A stretch of 64,000 bases of DNA from positions 46,714,681-46,778,680 of the forward strand of contig NC_063450.1 of assembly GCF_020379485.1 (NCBI RefSeq), in the 5' to 3' direction. The notes under the pieces were generated by a model, which was given only the letters and a program-made list of their open reading frames with translations, ran no database searches and was not told where the DNA came from. Shown here piece after piece: positions 6,627-32,945 of the stretch. The position numbers were made by a program, and so were the translations under genes. Source of the stretch: Brassica napus. Lineage: Eukaryota > Streptophyta > Magnoliopsida > Brassicales > Brassicaceae. Every line of letters starts with the position of its first letter. The first letter of the stretch is position 1.

Positions 6627-6635
6627 TAAAAAATA
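6627..6635. repeat. left 9-bp target duplication of the MULE
   Basis: TAAAAAATA here is repeated exactly at 15726-15734. Nine-base duplications are typical of Mutator-like elements. Confidence 0.9.
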
Positions 6636-6675
6636 GGGAGAATTGCCAAGTGTGACTCAAAACTTGGAGTCAAAC
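6636..6675 (+). repeat. left terminal inverted repeat of the MULE
   Basis: Begins GGGAGAATTGCCAAG and continues into GTGACTCAAAACTTGGAGTC, which is matched in inverse orientation at the right end. The outermost 15 bases are less conserved than the inner 24. Confidence 0.85.
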
Positions 6676-6794
6676 CCAAAACAATACCCCAATTTGGGTC
6701 AAAGGCAAAAGTAACCTAAAAGGCTATTGAAATTACAACTATCCCTTTGTGACCAAACAAAAAAAGGAATTTTTTTTACGTTTCTACCCCTCGC

Positions 6795-6910
6795 AAGTCG
6801 TCTGTTTAGACGACTTGAAAATAAGTCGTCCAGACGACTTAACTGAAAGTCGTCTGTTTAGACGACTTGAAAATAAGTCGTCCAGACGACTTAACTGAAA
6901 GTCGTCTGGA
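6795..6910. repeat. 52-bp tandem repeat built from GTCGTC palindromes
   Basis: Two complete 52-bp copies (GTCG words at 6797 and 6849) and the start of a third at 6901. Each copy contains AAGTCGTCTG-TTTA-GACGACTT and AAGTCGTCCAGACGACTT, so every copy can fold on itself. It lies about 120 bp inside the left element end. Confidence 0.85.
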
Positions 6911-7604
6911 CAGTTAGTCTTAAACATAATTTAAAAATTTTGTAAAAAATATTTTGATAAGTGAAAAAATGGGAATTATGTAATTAACATATGTCTTAGG
7001 AGGTATAAATTAAGATATAACAAATTTCAATTGTTTTCAGCATAGATGAGTGAAAGTAGTGAGTCATGATATTCTTTAGTTTATGTTTCATCAACATATG
7101 TTGTAGTATTGTATGTGTTCTTAGGGTTAGATTTTGGAAAGCATTAAAACCGTTTTTGAAATTTTTTAAAATTACTTATGCGTGTTCATTTCTGTGTATA
7201 GTAAACACTATTTAAGTATAATTTGATTTTATAACGTGGTTAGTTAGTTAATCTAGTCATTTTAGTTTAGGGGTTCATTTTAGGGTCTAGGACGACTTAA
7301 TATTTTGTCGTCTGAAAACAGACGACTAAATATTAAGTCATCTATTGTACATTATCAGCCATAATAAGTCGTCTTAACCGGACCAAACCTTAAAGTTTAC
7401 CAATGTACTTTTAAAGCTAACCGGATTATTTACCCAATATATAAGGTGATTTTTTCCTTTTTTGTTTCATTTTTCGCGAAATTCAGAAACCCTAACAGTT
7501 CTCTCTCAAAGGCGATTTCGAATTCCCACGATTTCCGAACAAACCATCGTTCTCAACGTCGGCTATCTATCTCACTTCATTCTCACTGTTGTCGCCGCAG
7601 CTTC

Positions 7605-7850
7605 TTCTAACCCTAGCGCCGCCGATTCCTCTAAACCCTAGCGCCGCCGATTCCTCTAAACCCTAGCGCCGCCGCTTCCACTATTTCCGAACAAACCGTC
7701 GCCCTCGCCACCGTGGTCACCAACGTTCTCACCGCCGCTTCCTCTAAACACTAGCGCCGCCGCTTCTTCTAAACCCTAGCGCCGCCGCTTCTTCTCTGTA
7801 AACCTTAGCGCCGTTTCTCTGTAAACCCTAACGCCGCTAAGTCATCAATC
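7605..7850 (+). repeat. 25-bp CCCTAGCGCCGCCG leader repeats
   Basis: CCCTAGCGCCGCCGATTCC starts at 7611, 7636 and 7661 with a 25-bp period, then recurs in diverged form to about 7840. Several copies are joined to AAACCCTA (a telo-box-like word). The tract lies in the presumed 5' leader of the ULP1-like gene. Confidence 0.75.
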
Positions 7851-7938
7851 TCGAGGAAAAGATGAACTTAAAACGTTGTCTCTATCAATTTACTCATTCT
7901 CACCGTTTCACGTTTATTTTTTCAGATCTATAACCGCA

Positions 7939-10900
7939 ATGACGAGTACTCCAACTCCTTCTGCGACTGGAAGACTTGTAAGTAATTTAAGTCGTCTGGA
8001 AAGTCTTCCAACTGGACGACTTAGTAGATGACTTAAATATAAGTCGTCCATTTGGAAGACTTTCCAGACGACTTAATTATAAGTCGTCTACTAAGTCGTC
8101 TGGACTTTTATTGTTGTCTTTGATTATTTTGCAGACAAAAAGGATGGATATTCCAGAACTCCCCCGTATGTTATACACATCAGGGGAAGAGCCAGAAGCC
8201 CACAATAGCATTTCGTATCATACGGATAACAGCAAGTTGCATACTGCTCTTAGGGAAGCTCTTACTGATGACGAATTTGAAGAGTTGAAGGAGTCGAGTT
8301 TGGGAGTTTTCATCAAGTTCAAGGACCAGGGATTTGGTTGGGCTTCAAGGCTGGTTCACTACATGCTCAGTTTCAAGCTGGACATTAAGAAGAAGTATGA
8401 GATGTGGTCTCTCGTTGGTCCAGAACCTTTGAGGTTTTCACTGTTAGAGTTTGAAAACCTCACTGGTCTAAACTGCGAGTACATCGAGGACCTTGAGACA
8501 CCAAAATGTGACGTTACCCAAGAGATGGTTTCTTTCTGGGGGATGCTGGGAGTTCATCTGGAAGCTGGGCCAACTACTGATCAGATAATATCAGCACTGA
8601 ACAGATGCGGGGATTGGTCCAGGGAAGATCGCAAGCGGCTCGCGTACCTCTCCATCTTCACTGGATTCATTGAAGGGAGAAAGTTTTCAACCGCTACACG
8701 ATCTACTCTGGCAAGGCTAGTGATGGATTTAGAACGGTTTGAGAATTATCCATGGGGGAGAGTCGCGTTTAAGGTGCTGATGGACTCTTTGTGGAACAAA
8801 GAAATTACTGGCTGTTACACCGTGGATGGGTTTATACAAGTTCATCAGGTCTGTGCGTACACAGCTATGCCGGAATTGGGTGCTAGTATTGGTGGTCCCA
8901 GAGCAGACAGTCCGTCTCCACCGATACTGGCTTACGAGGGCAGCAGAGGCCGCAGATCAATGAAAGCTGCTATCTTGAGTCAGGTATTTACTTCAATCCA
9001 AAAGACTGCGCAGACGACTTATAATAAGTCGTCTGGAAGGTCGTCCAGCTGGACGACTTATCTAACTCGATTCTTCTATTTACTGCAGACCCGCGTGATC
9101 AACTTTGTTGAGAAGGACATTAGTGAAATGTGGCCAAAATGGGACTCTGATGTTGAGGACCTGCCCGCGGAGAACATCATTAAAGTCATGTATGAGCGGA
9201 GACCGTGGAAGTGGACCATGGATTGCTGGGAAGTCACTGGTACTAAAGTCTATACAAAACCTAAGGTTGTGACTCCATCGAAGAAAGCCAAAGAGATGGT
9301 TGTGTTGGAGGAGGAGGAGGAGGAGGAAGACAATCCAAGACCTCGGAAGAAAGCTCGTAAAGAGGCTCCTAAAGTGGCTAGTGAAGAGGCTAGAGAAGAG
9401 GCTAGAGGGGTGACCAGAGAGGATTTGGAAATTATGTTCAAGGGCGTAGCTGACTGCATGAAAGAAGGGTTTAAGAAGTGCATGAGGGAGATTAGGAAGT
9501 TGTCCGATAGATTGGAAGCTGTGGAGAAGAAGGTTGGTGTCACCAATCAGGCTACCCCTCCACCTCTAACCAATCAGGCTACCCCTCAAGATAAACAGCC
9601 TACCCCTCTTGCCAAAGAAACCGGGGGTAGTAACAAACAGGCTACCCCTCATGCCAATGAAACCGTGGTTAGTAACCAGCCTCCTCCTCATCAAACCAAA
9701 CAGCAGCCTCCTCCTCCTCAAAAGAAACAGCCTCCTCCTCCTCCTCCTCAAAAGAAACAGCCTCCTCCTCAAAAGAAACAGCCTCCTCAAATCAAAGAGG
9801 TTAGTATCAAATCCAGGGTTAACTAGTTGTCCAGACGACTGTAAAAGTTGTCTGGACGACTAGTTGACCCTGGACGACTTAAACGTAAGTTGTCTGGACG
9901 ACTAGTTGACCACGGAAGACTTAATTTTAAGTCGTCCAGGGTCAACTAGTCGTCCAGACGATTTATATTTAAGTCGTCCAGGGTCAACTAGTCGTCCAGA
10001 CAACTTTTATTTAAGTCGTCCAGACAACTTTTATTTAAGTCGTCCAGGGTTAACTTGTGTGCAACTTTTATTGCAGAGATGGTTGCCGGAGGATACAGCA
10101 ACCGAGGCGAACTCGGTATATAAGATCTTGCCGGAGGATAAAGCAGATGGTGTCACCTCCAAACAACCGAGCCTCGCTTCCACCGAGCCAAGCGATCCAG
10201 TTTCAGAACCGAGCCTGGTTGTATTGGACAAGCGTGCAAAGAGTAAACGAGCGAAGAAACCTGCTCCCACTGTGAGATCTCCTTATACGGCAGAGAAAAA
10301 AAAAGATAAAGTGGCAGCCTATAATCCATTTCCGCCAGTAAACAAAGATAAGTTGAAGGAACTCGCTGATTGGTTGAAAACTGATCCGTAAGTGATTGCT
10401 TTACCCATAATAGCTTGATTTAGTCGTCCAAAACTGATTGCTTTTTTGTTTGCAGTCATTATTCAACTAAGACCGAGGACAAACCACGTACATCACCAAC
10501 AAGGTGGTACCACTTCCTCCAGACAGCCAGAGGATGGCTGGAAGACTGCGTAAGTCTTCTGCACACGATTTAAGTCGTCTACAAAGTCGTCCAAGTAGAC
10601 TACTTTCCAGACGTCTTAAAGATAAATCGTCTGGAAAGTCGTCTACTTGGACGACCACGTAGACGACTTATATTTAAGTCGTCTGGTAACTTCTAACTTG
10701 TTATATTTAATATGCAGCATATAGATGCTTGGATTAATGTGCTAAGGCAGAGGTATCAAGAGAACCCACAAGCTTTCAGGAGCGAGCGAATGTGCTTCCT
10801 GGATCACAACTTTTCCCAGTCTTGGAGAGAGCAGTATCACCTCTTCAAAACATCGGAACCTGATCACAAAGGTTTAGGAAGAGTTCTACCTGGTGGGGCG

Positions 10901-11425
10901 TCGAATTTTTATGACGGATCAATACCTTCATTTTGCCAATCAAACAAGAAGTGGGGGGAGGACATTGATGATATCTATGCGCCAGTGAACTTGAACGACA
11001 ATCATTGGGTTGCTATTTGGATATCGATCCCTAAGAGGCACATAGTCGTCTGGGACAGCATACCTTCATCTAGTGTACCAGACGCATGGGATGCGATAAT
11101 GGAGCCTTTTCTCCAGATGGTCCCTTATCTGCTTGTTGAGTGCGCAGCCACCGACGAAATACGGGTCAAATACGGGTTGGAGCCATACACATATGAGAGA
11201 CCGCTGAAAGGTGTACCCACGGCCAACAATGGTGATTGTGGCGTGTACGCTGTAAAGTACATTGAATGTCATGCTCTTGGGGTCTCCTTTGACCCTAAAG
11301 ACTTTGCTAGGTGCAACGCGAAGAAAATGAGGGATAATATGGCGGTGGATATATGGAAGGAGCTTGTTGATCAGCATTTGAAAGAAAATGTGGATGGTGA
11401 TAAGTTCGTGGGCATATATGATTAG
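7939..11425 (+). CDS. MULE-borne DUF1985/ULP1-like cysteine protease
   Basis: Six exons join in frame: 7939-7977, 8135-8983, 9089-9799, 10077-10387, 10456-10549, 10718-11425, for 903 residues. The first exon encodes only MTSTPTPSATGRL. An N-terminal DUF1985-like region (FRFSLLEFENLTGL, GWASRLVHYML) is followed by a Glu-rich, basic and then Pro/Gln-rich linker. The C-terminal C48 peptidase fold has His764 (DNHWVAIW), Asp781 (IVVWDS) and Cys842 (NNGDCGVYAV). The usual oxyanion-hole Gln before the Cys is not visible: the sequence reads VPTANNGDCG. Known ULP1 enzymes cleave SUMO or similar tags. The role in transposons is not known. Every intron contains GACGACTT/AAGTCGTC repeats. The intron at 8984-9088 is 105 nt, keeps the frame and has no stop, so its retention would still give protein. 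Confidence 0.85.
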
Positions 11426-11910
11426 ATTTGTGTTTGTATTTGAACCTGTCTTTGTATTTGAACATGATTTTTTAACGAGCGAAATATTTGTATTTCAGCT
11501 TGTCTTTGTATAGATTTGTAAATATATAAGTTGTCTGGAAGAAATAAGTCGTCTGGAAGGTTTTCCAACTTGACGACTTACAAATAAGTCGTCTAGAAGG
11601 TTTGGACGACTTATTATAAGTCGTCTGGAAGGTTTTCCAACTGGACGACTTACACTGGACTTCTAAAAATAAAATACACTGGACGACTTACACTGGACTT
11701 CTAAAAATAAAATACACTGGACGACTTAGTAGAAGGTAGTCTAAAAATAAAATACACTTGAAGGGATAGTAGAAGGTCGTCTAAAAATAAAATACACTGG
11801 ACGACTTAGTAGAAGGTCGTCTAAAAATAAAATACACTGGACGACTAAAAATTTAGTCGTCTGGACGGGTAATCAAGACTGGACGACTTAAATTTAGGTC
11901 GTCTGGACAA
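11426..11910. repeat. shared 3' region with GTCGTC units and ~40-bp tandem repeats
   Basis: Lies between the two convergent stop codons. It holds paired GTCGTC/GACGAC words and, from about 11650 to 11850, at least four copies of a unit of about 40 bp containing CTAAAAATAAAATACACTGG followed by ACGACTTAGTAGAAGG. Both transcripts probably end inside it, so it could be transcribed on both strands. Confidence 0.8.
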
Positions 11911-14289
11911 CTAGTCAACTGGTTGTGTACATTGTGGTTTCGTATGGCCAGTTTCCTTGCAGTTTGAGCATCTCCGTGCCCTGTGTTTCTTCCTGGGTTT
12001 GTGTCCTCTCATCCTAGATAGCTCCAACCAAGATTGCCATCTTGATTTCTTCGGTCTCCCCCGACCACGCTTTAGTTCTGGAGGAAAGCATTCTCGTTCC
12101 TCAATATGTTGTGACACGATAGGATATATATTCTCTGAGTATCCTGCATACAGATAATTCTTTGAGTACAGTGGACATACAAGTGTGGAGATATGCAAAC
12201 CAGCATGTGTTCCAGCAGCTATAGCATGAGAGCAAGGTATTTTCTCCACTCCATAGACACCACAATCACACTTTGCATGTTCCAAATCAACCACACAGTC
12301 CATTTTGCCACCTTTGACAAAGAAATGCCATCCATCAATTGGTTCGACCGTCATCGTATCCGCTATCTCTTCTCGAACAGCAAGCAAGTATTCAACACCC
12401 CCGCTATGTTCAGTTGTGAGACTCAAAGCATCTTGTCTCCTTTTCCAATACCATTTTCCTAACTTCTGCCTTATGAACTCCAGCAGGAACGTAATCGGAA
12501 ATCCTCTTGCTCGCTTCAGTGCGGAATTAATAGATTCAGCAATGTTGCTTGTTTTTATGTTGAACCTGTTCCCCTTACAATAAACCCTTGACCATAGCCT
12601 GACGTCGGCTTTCTCCAAATACGTTGCAAGTTCCGGGTTTGCACTCCGTATCTCAGCCATGTACCGGTCAAAATCGTAAACCGTGTGAGCATAAGCAGCC
12701 CCTTTCACCAAGTACATGAGATGTTTCCCTTTAAACTTTTTGACAATGTTATCTTGAAGGTGATAATAACATATTCCTCGGGTTGCCCAAGGAAACACCT
12801 TATCACACGCACTTTTAATGGCCTTGTGCCGGTCGGAGACTATCACCAGAGGCTTGTCATGAGATATACAACTAGCCAATTTTGTGAAAAACCATTCCCA
12901 AGAAGGTACATCTTCCTCATCCACGATCCCAAAAGCCAATGGGAATATCTGAAAATTGCCATCTTGTGCGGCTGCAACTAACATAGTTCCTCCATACTTT
13001 CCACTTAGGTGAGTTCCATCCACCACAATGACCCTTCTCTGATACTTAAAACCTTTGATAGAAGCTCCAAAAGAGAGAAATAGATACTTAAATCTTTTCA
13101 TAGAATCAAGTTCTATCGCCGTGATAGAATCAGGATTTGCAATGGAGATTTGCTCGAGATATGATGCCAGACGCGAATACCCTTCTTCTGCTGATCCTCT
13201 CACCAATCTTTGTGCATATAACAGTGCTCTGTATGAAGTGGTGTAATCAAGCGCCATGCCAAACATGTTCCTCATTGCATCAGTGATATGCTGCGGAGTT
13301 ATCCCATCAATGATTCCAACACGATCAATGAAAAGACTACCTACATACTTCGGAGTACAGTGTCTCCGCTGAGCGATTCGGTCTCCCGCTGAGCATAAAT
13401 GTTTTTCCACATACTTTGTTACCCAAAACGTGTTTGTCCCATGTTTGACACTCGCTCTGACCTTCCATCCACAATAGCTAACCCGACATGTTGCCACAAC
13501 GAGAGTTTTCGTTGATTTGTATAATCTGAAAGAAAACTTACCCCTCACTGCTGCCAACCGCAGCTCTGAAAGCAGTGCACCCTTGCTAACAAAACTCTGG
13601 TTGACATAGATACTGGTACCATTCGATTTTCCTCCTTCAATAGCATTTGTCTTAGCATATGTCTTTTGGATTTCTTCAAAACAAATATTATCATCATCTT
13701 CCTCGTCCTCATCTGGAACCTTTCCATAAAGACTGTAATCCCCACCATTCTGATCCGTTTCACCAACAATAGAATTATCAGCATCCTCCTCCCCATTTTC
13801 CTCCTCCCCATCTTGATTTTCATCTTCAACAAACTCATTATCACCAACATCTTCATCATCATCACCAACATCTTCTTCCCATTCACCAGCTTCATCATTA
13901 TCACCAACATCTTTTTCCCATTCACCAGCTTCATCAATATCCCTTTTCTCTGAAACCGTTTCGACCTTGCTGCGGCTTGATACACAAAGACATACTCTAT
14001 GGGTTTTGAGTATCTCCAGCAAGTTTCGAACTTGTCTATCACTTGTAACATGAATGGGAAGACTGCCTGGAGCCATCATCATTTCTGCTGGTAATGAGTA
14101 GCTAATCTCCACACTCACTGTTCTCATGTCCAGGTTATAATCTTCTTGAGCCATTGCAACAAGTTCAGCATGTGTTGAATCTTCATTCAATAAAAACAAT
14201 CTTGCTCCTTTGAGATCATCAACCACAAAATCCCAACGGAAATCTCTCAACAACCATTCTCCATACACTGCATGTAACTGAAAAATCAT
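11911..14289 (-). CDS. MULE transposase (MURA-type)
   Basis: 792 residues in one exon. The start at 14289 is chosen because TTTGCAG directly precedes it in an AT-rich intron-like stretch; the open frame runs upstream to 14418, but that part is made of repeats. In order: an N-terminal region with a long Asp/Glu-rich tract, a MuDR-type DNA-binding segment (CRVSYCGWKVRAS), the MULE catalytic core with Asp424 (VVDGTHL) and Asp486 (VSDRHKA), the CYYH motif (GICYYHLQDN) and probable Glu585 (NIAESIN). These are followed by a SWIM zinc finger (CDCGVYGVEKIPCSHA) and a CCHC knuckle (CSNCKETGHTKPQC). All recognisable domains are present without frameshift, so it is likely active or recently active. It would cut and move the element through its terminal repeats. 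Confidence 0.9.
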   Translation of the reverse strand: MIFQLHAVYGEWLLRDFRWDFVVDDLKGARLFLLNEDSTHAELVAMAQEDYNLDMRTVSVEISYSLPAEMMMAPGSLPIHVTSDRQVRNLLEILKTHRVCLCVSSRSKVETVSEKRDIDEAGEWEKDVGDNDEAGEWEEDVGDDDEDVGDNEFVEDENQDGEEENGEEDADNSIVGETDQNGGDYSLYGKVPDEDEEDDDNICFEEIQKTYAKTNAIEGGKSNGTSIYVNQSFVSKGALLSELRLAAVRGKFSFRLYKSTKTLVVATCRVSYCGWKVRASVKHGTNTFWVTKYVEKHLCSAGDRIAQRRHCTPKYVGSLFIDRVGIIDGITPQHITDAMRNMFGMALDYTTSYRALLYAQRLVRGSAEEGYSRLASYLEQISIANPDSITAIELDSMKRFKYLFLSFGASIKGFKYQRRVIVVDGTHLSGKYGGTMLVAAAQDGNFQIFPLAFGIVDEEDVPSWEWFFTKLASCISHDKPLVIVSDRHKAIKSACDKVFPWATRGICYYHLQDNIVKKFKGKHLMYLVKGAAYAHTVYDFDRYMAEIRSANPELATYLEKADVRLWSRVYCKGNRFNIKTSNIAESINSALKRARGFPITFLLEFIRQKLGKWYWKRRQDALSLTTEHSGGVEYLLAVREEIADTMTVEPIDGWHFFVKGGKMDCVVDLEHAKCDCGVYGVEKIPCSHAIAAGTHAGLHISTLVCPLYSKNYLYAGYSENIYPIVSQHIEERECFPPELKRGRGRPKKSRWQSWLELSRMRGHKPRKKHRARRCSNCKETGHTKPQCTQPVD

Positions 14290-14339
14290 CTGCAAATATT
14301 CAAAATAAAACACATTAGTAAACATAGAGAAAATGAAGA

Positions 14340-15200
14340 AGTTCAATAAACATTGCCGCAGACGACTTAGCATTAAGTCGTCCAGAAGACTTAAAGGTAA
14401 GTCGTCTAAAGAGGTCACTTTTGCAATTGAAAATTAAAAGGGACGACTTAATTCTAAGTCGTCCGGCTTTGTTTGTTAAAAAAAAAACTTCAGACGACTT
14501 ATATATAAGTCGTCTACGAGAAACGGGCTAGTTTTGCATTTGACCGAATCGTGTCAGATCTTTGACTATTTCTGGACGACTTATAATTCAGTCGTCTCTG
14601 GGAAAGTTAAAATTTCAATATTTTATGAAAACTTGACGACTTACGTGTAAGTCGTCCTAGGTTAGTTTTGTAATTGAAAAATAAAACTTGAAATTTAACT
14701 TTCTCCAGACGACTTAGATGAAAGTCGTCCAGCTAAACGACTTAATTTAAGGTCGTCCGGGATAAGCAAAGTTTGACCAGAAAATTGGGAAAAATTCTGG
14801 ACGACTTTGCTTTCCCCGGACGACTTTAAATTAAGTCTTCTGGAGGGACGACTTTATATTAAGTCGTCTGGTTAAAGTTAAATTATGAAGTTTTATTTTT
14901 CAATTACAAAACTAACCTAGGACGACTTACACGTAAGTCGTCAAGTTTTCATAAAATATTGAAATTTTAACTTTCCCAGAGACGACTGAATTATAAGTCG
15001 TCCAGAAATAGTCAAAGATCTGACACGATTCGGTCAAATGCAAAACTAGCCCGTTTCTCGTAGACGACTTATATATAAGTCGTCTGGAGTGTTTTTTTTT
15101 AACAAACAAAGCTGGACGACTTAATTTAAGTCGTCCGTTTGACCAGAAGACTCATCAGTAAGTCTTCTACATACAGATGACTTACTAGTAAGTCTTCTAC
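14340..15200. repeat. subterminal palindrome array upstream of the transposase
   Basis: Dense GACGACTT and AAGTCGTC pairs separated by short AT spacers such as TATATA or ATTT. Each pair is itself a hairpin. The array lies between the transposase start and the right element end, so it covers the promoter and leader. Confidence 0.85.
14441..15136. repeat. ~700-bp foldback with ~260-bp arms
   Basis: Arm 1 (14441 to about 14703) reappears as its reverse complement at about 14874-15136. Landmarks match in reverse order: GGCTTTGTTTGTTAA versus TTAACAAACAAAGC, CGAGAAACGGGCTAG versus CTAGCCCGTTTCTCG, GATCTTTGACTATTTC versus GAAATAGTCAAAGATC, and CCTAGGTTAGTTTTG versus CAAAACTAACCTAGG. The loop is about 170 bases. 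Transcription through it would give a long hairpin RNA. Confidence 0.9.
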
Positions 15201-15686
15201 GCGAACAGATCTTGAAAAAAAATTCAAATTCGTACCTTAAACTAGGTGAGATGACTTCGTTTGCACACAGGGTCTTCTCCAACCACCCAGAACCTCAAAC
15301 GAAAGCAACCGTAAGTCAAAACGAAAGAAATATGGCTCTGTCAACCATAGCCCATATTTTGAATCAAAAGCTTGAGTTTTTTGGATGAATATAGAGAGAA
15401 AGTGAAAGAAATGTTGTTTTTAGTTCATAACAATTGAAACAGAGAGAGTGTAAAGAGATTTACGTGCATTAAAGGGCATTAAAAGCTCCAAACAGTTCGT
15501 ACAAGGTTGTTGCCACTATTCATTGCAGTGGCAATATTGTAAATACTTGAAGAAGATGAGGTTGAGACAGTAAAGAAGCCATTTTCGAAAAAAAAAAAAA
15601 ATGTTAATGGCATTTTCGTAGATAAAATGCAGGTGTAGGGTTAAAATCTCAAAAAAAAAAGAGTCAAAAGAAAAGGTTAGTTTTCT

Positions 15687-15725
15687 GTTTGACTCCAAGT
15701 TTTGAGTCACTTTTGCAAAAAGCCC
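15687..15725 (-). repeat. right terminal inverted repeat of the MULE
   Basis: The reverse complement begins GGGCTTTTTGCAAAA and runs into GTGACTCAAAACTTGGAGTC, matching the left end. Confidence 0.85.
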
Positions 15726-15734
15726 TAAAAAATA
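15726..15734. repeat. right 9-bp target duplication of the MULE
   Basis: TAAAAAATA, identical to 6627-6635. Confidence 0.9.
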
Positions 15735-32501: not shown

Positions 32502-32945
32502 GGGCAAATTTCCAAAATAACACATTTCTAAGTTTATATCACAAAAATAGCATTCAAAAACTAAAAAGACCAAAATAGCACATTTCTAAGTTTATCCTTT
32601 GAAAATTTTAATTTTTTTATTTTTCAAAATTTGAAATCTTATCCCCAAAACCTCATTTTTCAACTCTAAACCCTAAACCCTAAACTCTAAACCCTAAACT
32701 CTAAACTCTAAACCCTAAACCCTAAACTCTAAACCCTAAACCCTAAACCTTAAACCCTAAACCCTAAACTCTAAACCCTAAACCCTAAACTCTAAACCCT
32801 AAACCCTAAATCCTAAACCTTACCCTTTAACTCTAAACCCTAACTTTGTGACTTTTGATAAAACATTAAGTGATATTTTTGTGACTTTTGACCTTGAGTG
32901 CTAGTTTGGGAACAAAAACTTGATTTAGTGCTATTTTTGTTTTTT
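32502..32945. mobile_element. probable small non-autonomous element with telomere-like core
   Basis: The left side starts GGGCAAATTTCCAAAATA and repeats ACATTTCTAAGTTTAT at about 32523 and 32580. The right side (to about 32945) contains AGTGATATTTTTGTGACTTTTG and GTGCTATTTTTGTTTTTTTC, complementary in character to CAAAAATAGCA near the left. Near-match 9-mers AAGGAGAAA and AAGAGGAAA flank it. This layout resembles abundant Brassica non-autonomous MULEs, but the ends are not clean. Confidence 0.45.
32657..32848. repeat. interstitial telomere-like repeats
   Basis: More than twenty copies of AAACCCT/AAACTCT, the complement of the plant telomere word TTTAGGG with frequent one-base variants (CTCTAA, TCCTAA, CCTTAA). 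Confidence 0.9.

What the first reader, a model, noticed from the sequence alone, without database searches (positions are those of the whole stretch)
6790..15185. Several dozen GACGACTT/AAGTCGTC palindromes confined to non-coding parts of the MULE
The word AAGTCGTC and its complement recur across both subterminal regions, in most introns of the ULP1-like gene, in the shared 3' region and upstream of the transposase, yet are essentially absent from coding exons. They occur mostly as pairs around a short AT spacer, so each pair folds into a small hairpin. Uniform spread over unrelated introns argues for active homogenisation or selection and not for chance. Possible roles (inference): transposase binding sites, splicing or export signals, small-RNA sources, or an internal replication/repair product. 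I know of no described function for such an element-wide word family.
Basis: partly seen in the sequence, partly recalled or inferred. Interest (0 to 1): 0.85.

Follow-up and report, generated by a model that had tools for sequence, protein, structure and literature searches.

The report
Transposon packed with anti-silencing target words
A rapeseed-type jumping gene carries dozens of copies of one short DNA word in its non-coding parts, most likely the landing sites by which a protein made by the same element keeps that element from being silenced, with the words laid out as palindromes instead of in one-way rows.

Summary
63 of the window's 64 exact AAGTCGTC/GACGACTT words lie inside one Mutator-like element (6636-15725, perfect 9-bp target-site duplication). 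All 63 are in its 3,999 non-coding bp, none in 5,091 coding bp; shuffled non-coding sequence gives 0.24. The best explanation is a known kind of system: the VANDAL/VANC anti-silencing system of Arabidopsis, in which a DUF1985 protein encoded by the element binds a short word in the element's own non-coding DNA and silencing marks are lost (Hosaka 2017). The 'ULP1-like gene' here is a DUF1985-Ulp1 protein, the Ulp1-carrying (KIU) VANC type. AGTCGTCC differs by one base from VANC6's AGTTGTCC. In the same genome, three DUF1985 lineages share AAGTCGTC although their introns hardly align any more; two others carry AAGTCTTC or AAGTCTAC. What looks unusual is the layout: inverted pairs with a constant 6-nt gap, and introns and a 622-bp block built as palindromes, the block's centre flipped in 1 of 6 copies. 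Binding and demethylation were not tested. Transposase sites, hairpin RNA and pure duplication are weaker rivals.

The parts
6636..15725 (.). Mutator-like element, 9,090 bp, with imperfect terminal inverted repeats of 53-55 bp
   Evidence: Local alignment of the ends and flanking 9-bp duplication
6627..6635 (.). Target-site duplication, left copy TAAAAAATA
15726..15734 (.). Target-site duplication, right copy TAAAAAATA
6795..6906 (.). Left word array (9 exact words, inverted repeats inside a 52-bp tandem)
7939..11425 (+). DUF1985-Ulp1 protease gene (VANC/KIU type), 6 exons: 7939-7977, 8135-8983, 9089-9799, 10077-10387, 10456-10549, 10718-11425; open frame; exon 1 is my prediction
   Evidence: Pfam PF09331 E 2.8e-26 and PF02902 E 1.1e-36; exons 2-6 mapped with P0121; all introns GT..AG
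7978..8134 (+). Intron 1: 6 words; palindrome arms 7987-8023 / 8040-8076, 37 nt, 97% complementary
8984..9088 (+). Intron 2: 3 words
9800..10076 (+). Intron 3: 5 exact words (16 with up to 1 mismatch); palindrome arms 9842-9924 / 9927-10009, 83 nt, 92%
10550..10717 (+). Intron 5: 5 words; palindrome arms 10568-10618 / 10623-10673, 51 nt, 86%
11426..11910 (.). Shared 3' region between the two genes: 10 words, tandem and inverted copies
11911..14289 (-). MULE transposase CDS (MULE, Transposase_mut, DBD_Tnp_Mut, SWIM); no exact word
14290..15135 (.). Upstream of transposase and right subterminal block: 23 words
14478..15099 (.). 622-bp palindrome: arms 14478-14696 / 14881-15099 (219 nt, 98%); the inner 184 bp is inverted in 1 of 6 copies

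Best explanation
The words are target sites of the element's own DUF1985-Ulp1 protein, a VANC-type anti-silencing factor of the Ulp1-carrying (KIU) sort. The element is a Brassica relative of Arabidopsis VANDALs. Proposed mechanism: the protein is made, binds the dense words in the ends, introns and inter-gene regions (the kind of regions that host RNA-directed DNA methylation attacks in VANDALs), local methylation falls, and both genes become active. Words are kept by this selection and multiplied by local tandem and inverted duplication. Shown here: word distribution, gene content, word identity following protein lineage, palindromic layout. Inferred: binding, demethylation, and a paired (dimer) mode of reading for the 6-nt-spaced inverted pairs.
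For: (1) The element encodes DUF1985 plus Ulp1; DUF1985 is a VANC domain in PMC5735166, and Ulp1-carrying VANC genes are described in PMC13317346. (2) The placement matches VANC21 sites: introns, intergenic and terminal non-coding DNA, upstream of the transposase. (3) AGTCGTCC is one transition from the VANC6 motif AGTTGTCC; 849 of 200,000 random 10-mers come as close to either VANC6 motif. (4) Same genome: the window lineage, L052/L065 and the P0152 lineage (60-74% DUF1985 identity between them) carry AAGTCGTC; L064 carries AAGTCTTC (24) and L056-L059 AAGTCTAC (11-14). L064 still aligns with the window at 6914-7139, so a related element has a changed word. (5) With words masked, no intron of the window aligns to L049, L055 or L062; only stretches within 6643-7522 do. 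To L052/L065 only intron stretches of 25-29 bp align. (6) Both strands are used about equally, so double-stranded DNA is the likely ligand.
Against: No binding or methylation data. VANC21 motifs lie in one orientation; here they are mostly inverted. Within 15 young copies words change about as fast as other non-coding DNA (non-CpG 0.0050 vs 0.0057 per cell), so no selection is visible at that depth. The word is stable across three lineages, unlike the rapid turnover reported for VANC targets. The AGTCGTCT half of the words (35, against 37 AGTCGTCC) and the two other words are not within one mismatch of a VANC6 motif. The word-protein link rests on five lineages, and the two deviant ones sit on weakly supported branches (68/51). 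Relatives hold occasional words in exons (L049 at 3456, L056 at 2176). Only two genes were recognised, where three are reported for KIU elements. AF2 models of DUF1985 were too poor to show a DNA-binding fold.
Confidence: 0.77

Rival explanations
1. Internal and subterminal binding sites for the MULE transposase, used for end recognition or self-regulation.
For: Word arrays lie in both subterminal regions, and the element encodes a transposase with a DBD_Tnp_Mut domain.
Against: The outer 159 bp and 590 bp hold no exact word; 19 of 63 words are in introns of the other gene and 10 between the genes. End recognition would not need words in introns.
Confidence: 0.06
2. The palindromes act as RNA: intronic hairpins that feed small RNAs or affect splicing or export.
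For: Five of five folded stretches, chosen for their words, fold far better than shuffles, z -4.7 to -12.1; arms of 37-83 nt, 86-97% complementary, in introns 1, 3 and 5.
Against: Words and palindromes also lie outside the genes. In L056-L059 every AAGTCTAC points the same way, L056 has no inverted repeat of 32 nt or more within 400 bp, and in L060 the 9 close word pairs are all one way, so the word, not the hairpin, is the common feature.
Confidence: 0.07
3. No function: words are a by-product of local duplication and of template switching that perfects imperfect palindromes.
For: Tandem arrays and palindromes up to 622 bp; one block flipped in 1 of 6 copies; no clearly slower change in words than around them among 15 young copies.
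Against: The same word in lineages whose introns no longer align, the fixed 6-nt gap with 12 different spacers among 15, and a word that shifts with the DUF1985 lineage are not expected of a neutral by-product.
Confidence: 0.1

Closest known systems
VANDAL21 / VANC21 (Hiun), Arabidopsis thaliana, motif YAGTATTAY
   Same: Mutator-like element with transposase plus DUF1985 protein; short motif dense in introns, intergenic and terminal non-coding DNA, much less in exons (PMC5735166, parts 1-3 of 6 read)
   Different: Different word (YAGTATTAY occurs 0 times here); VANC21 motifs are in one orientation; here inverted pairs and long palindromes. VANC proteins in that paper show DUF1985 and DUF287; here Ulp1, and no DUF287 match in the exon ORFs (E up to 0.01) or in three relatives (E up to 0.1)
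VANDAL6 / VANC6, motifs AGTTGTCC and AGTTGTAC
   Same: AGTCGTCC differs from AGTTGTCC by one C/T transition at a CpG; motifs in non-coding regions
   Different: Word here contains CpG; about half of the words continue with T (AGTCGTCT), which is not within one mismatch
Ulp1-carrying VANC genes (KIU, Kaonashi) of VANDALs; Sasaki et al. 2022 (EMBO J e110070, not held; known to me through passages of PMC13317346 and PMC10398659)
   Same: DUF1985-type VANC plus Ulp1 in one MULE gene; cognate non-coding motif recognition reported in the review passage
   Different: Brassica element; its motif and palindromic layout could not be compared with the 2022 motifs

Membership tests
Mutator-like element | MULE transposase | tested here: met
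   PF10551 E 5e-23, PF00872, PF03108, SWIM
Mutator-like element | 9-bp target-site duplication | tested here: met
   TAAAAAATA at 6627 and 15726, no mismatch
VANDAL/VANC system | Encodes a DUF1985 protein next to the transposase | tested here: met
   PF09331 E 2.8e-26; spliced frame open
VANDAL/VANC system | Short motif dense in the element's non-coding DNA, rare in coding DNA | tested here: met
   63 of 63 non-coding; 6 of 6 near-full copies 67-74 words, 0 in coding-aligned DNA
VANDAL/VANC system | Motif differs between elements with different VANC proteins | tested here: met
   AAGTCGTC, AAGTCTTC, AAGTCTAC by DUF1985 lineage; five lineages only
VANDAL/VANC system | Motifs arrayed in the same orientation (as reported for VANDAL21) | tested here: not met
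   Window: 36 of 49 close neighbours alternate. Relatives L056-L059 and L060 do show one-way arrays
VANDAL/VANC system | Degenerate terminal inverted repeats | tested here: met
   Imperfect 53-55-bp match of the two ends with gaps; trait
VANDAL/VANC system | VANC protein binds the motif | not testable with these tools
   Needs EMSA, DAP-seq or ChIP
VANDAL/VANC system | VANC expression removes DNA methylation from cognate copies | not testable with these tools
   Needs transgenic lines and bisulfite sequencing
KIU (Ulp1-carrying VANC) | Ulp1 C48 domain in the same gene as DUF1985 | tested here: met
   PF02902 E 1.1e-36, same spliced gene, both domains in database relative P0121. HW and DS align with yeast Ulp1 chain 1euv_A at E 0.0024 and DCG is present; that these hold the catalytic His, Asp and Cys is recall
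KIU (Ulp1-carrying VANC) | One of three coding genes in the element | tested here: inconclusive
   Only two genes recognised in 6636-15725; small ORFs not tested one by one

The most novel reading that the evidence does not exclude
A palindromic form of TE anti-silencing: the DUF1985-Ulp1 protein reads GACGACTT-N6-AAGTCGTC as a dimer, the CpG inside each half-site makes binding depend on methylation so that the element flips between on and off states, and whole introns are kept as near-perfect palindromes by arm-to-arm exchange that can invert blocks.
Probability: 0.2. Interest if true: 0.75.

Novelty: new variant of a known kind. Interest (0 to 1): 0.52.

Why it matters
If right, it carries the VANC anti-silencing system to Brassica: one genome holds several DUF1985 lineages with at least three related words (AAGTCGTC, AAGTCTTC, AAGTCTAC) and 14,470 inverted word pairs genome-wide against 0 for the control pattern. 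That is a natural series for learning how this protein class reads DNA and changes specificity, and a lead for sequence-addressed removal of DNA methylation in a crop genome. It also raises a testable question: why would an element that must escape small-RNA silencing build its introns as long hairpins?

Tried and rejected
Selection within the young family: 15 aligned copies show word CpG decay (TpG/CpA) of 5 of 435 cells, against 25 of 1,024 for other non-coding CpGs and 22 of 1,295 for coding CpGs, and nearly equal non-CpG change. No significance test was run and I draw no conclusion. A first version with unoriented copies was discarded.

Helical spacing: same-strand word distances in the window score above random placement at 10.5 bp (p 0.011), but 13 bp scores higher; L064 peaks at 11 bp and L054 at 10 bp. 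Only eight trial periods were used and pairs within arrays are not independent; left open.

Fold of DUF1985: mean pLDDT 52 (whole P0121) and 50 (exon 2 alone); too weak, so no fold search was run.

Absence from exons as evidence: rejected, since about 0.1 words are expected there anyway.

Literature: a search for the word itself listed 15 of 9,740 papers, none about transposons by title. Sasaki 2022 is not held, so it may already list this motif. Its abstract, as I recall it, speaks of motif sequence, density and helical periodicity; no call showed me that text.

Searches did not complete: transposase in own genome (17, 19), PF09331 (40, 43, 45, 47, 49), PF03384 (39, 62, 96), the opposite-orientation pair (80, 82, 84, 87, 89, 93), variable-gap pair (105, 110, 113, 116, 117, 119).
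Full report
Observation. The word count is real and far above chance: 64 exact words in 64 kb, 63 of them at 6795-15135. The window lies in a 997-Mb assembly. Three of its contig lengths (30,963,416, 29,581,582 and 29,228,566) equal those printed for Brassica napus proteins (P0110, P0090, P0094), so I take it to be B. napus (inference).

The element. The two ends share an imperfect inverted repeat of 53-55 bp and are flanked by a perfect 9-bp duplication, giving 6636-15725. It holds two recognised genes. The plus-strand gene has six exons with GT..AG introns and an open frame and joins DUF1985 to a Ulp1 protease domain. The minus-strand gene is a MULE transposase. A genome search with the DUF1985 exons gave 163 matches from 78 scored candidates of 6,306; the listed first-exon matches are 94-100% identical. 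Fifteen copies differ from their majority by 0.1-1.2% in coding DNA, so this is a young family.

Word statistics. With the corrected exon map there are 63 exact words in 3,999 non-coding bp and none in 5,091 coding bp; shuffles give 0.24 and 0.11. Six near-full copies carry 67-74 words each, none in coding-aligned DNA. Words sit on both strands, 33 and 30, and mostly alternate. The pair GACGACTT-N6-AAGTCGTC occurs 15 times against 0.26 by random placement with 12 distinct spacers. Genome-wide that pair has 14,470 sites and the reversed control 0.

Palindromes. Pairs are parts of larger inverted repeats: 37-nt arms in intron 1, 83 in intron 3, 51 in intron 5, and 219-nt arms at 14478-14696 / 14881-15099. 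In all six near-full copies the segment matching 14478-15099 aligns to its own reverse complement at 90-92% over its length. In one of the six (L041) the inner 184 bp match the window at 98.4% on the minus strand and 75.7% on the plus strand; in the other five they match at 98.9-99.5% on the plus strand. Five word-bearing stretches fold as RNA with z from -4.7 to -12.1. Five of six relatives looked at show the same habit: longest arms 138 nt in L052, 116 in L049, 74 in L055, 86 in L065, 52 in L064; L056 has none of 32 nt or more within 400 bp.

Relatives and words. I searched the genome with three other DUF1985 proteins and fetched loci. Top 8-mers: AAGTCGTC or its one-base shift in L045-L050 (six of six), L051-L055 (five of five), L060-L063 (four of four) and L065; AAGTCTTC in L064 (24 copies); AAGTCTAC or its shift AGTCTACA in L056-L059 (four of four). 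AAGTCTTC is also a minority word in the AAGTCGTC loci (9 in the window's element, 14 in L052). A tree of 15 chosen rows (13 different sequences; the other loci were left out as close copies or as lacking the exon) groups the AAGTCGTC rows in two starred groups of 5 and 7; the placing of L064 and L056/L057 is weak (68/51). With words masked, the window's non-coding DNA aligns to L049, L055 and L062 only within 6643-7522, to L064 only at 6914-7139, and to L056 nowhere; to L052 and L065 it aligns over much of 6636-7937, and in introns only over 25-29 bp at 8110-8134 and 10389-10417. Several of these loci hold only part of an element. So the word outlives the surrounding intron sequence.

Coding words in relatives. 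The automatic coding mask gave 1-3 coding words per locus in L045-L050, L054 and L056-L059. Reading the alignments for L056 and L049, some are intron or 5' sequence bridged by the aligner, but one in each lies in a true exon (L056 2176, L049 3456). Confinement is therefore strong but not absolute outside the window family.

Unbiased sample. The first eight loci of an 18-bp double-word search (L001-L008; L005 and L006 overlap) have no match within 3 kb to six DUF1985-Ulp1 or transposase proteins at E 1e-4, but all eight align at 70-84% to end regions of the window's element (some short hits are word arrays): they look like ends of related elements.

Known systems. PMC5735166 (parts 1-3 of 6 read; passages) reports that VANC21 binds YAGTATTAY in non-coding parts of VANDAL21, that VANC6 targets carry AGTTGTCC and AGTTGTAC, and that motifs grow by tandem repeats. 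PMC10398659 (part 1 of 6 and passages) reports that host RNA-directed methylation attacks non-coding regions of VANDALs and that VANDALs have degenerate terminal repeats. PMC13317346 (passages) states that some VANDALs carry a VANC gene with a Ulp1 domain (KIU) and recognise motifs only in KIU-carrying VANDALs. The window fits this last type.

Interpretation. The best account is a Brassica VANC/KIU-type system with its own word. The shared start AGT in AGTCGTCC, AGTCTTCC, AGTCTACA, AGTTGTCC, AGTTGTAC and AGTATTAC suggests one reading mode with a variable tail (inference from six words, aligned by eye). The palindromic layout departs from the one-way arrays described for VANC21; the constant 6-nt gap suggests a paired reader (inference). 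Paper searches combining VANC, VANDAL, DUF1985, Ulp1 and Brassica listed no paper, by title or abstract start, on a VANC motif in Brassica (16 of 16 listed, 10 of 97 listed); Sasaki 2022 could not be read.

Limits.

Noticed in passing
window 57459: The only exact word outside the element; a single isolated copy.
   Followed up: no
window 14478-15099; L041: 622-bp palindrome whose inner 184 bp is inverted in one of six copies: an invertible block or an assembly error.
   Followed up: partly
G000:C1, for example 2499267-2502007: Clusters of inverted word pairs about 3 kb long recur along the contig with the same spacers; an abundant, perhaps deleted, related element.
   Followed up: partly
P0121, P0152, P0228; P0126, P0127, P0189, P0217: DUF1985-Ulp1 proteins give weak matches to PF10536, plant mobile domain (E 0.0004-0.01, below the curated cut-off), overlapping and just behind DUF1985; four database relatives carry both labels. 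The two domains may be related.
   Followed up: partly
window 32662-32843: Interstitial array of 26 telomere-like AACCCTA units.
   Followed up: no
L003 887-1964: A right end and a left end of related elements lie back to back: two adjacent or nested insertions.
   Followed up: no
window 9500-9799: The DUF1985-Ulp1 protein has a repeat-rich Pro/Gln/Lys stretch, like the tandem peptide motifs reported for variable regions of VANC proteins.
   Followed up: no
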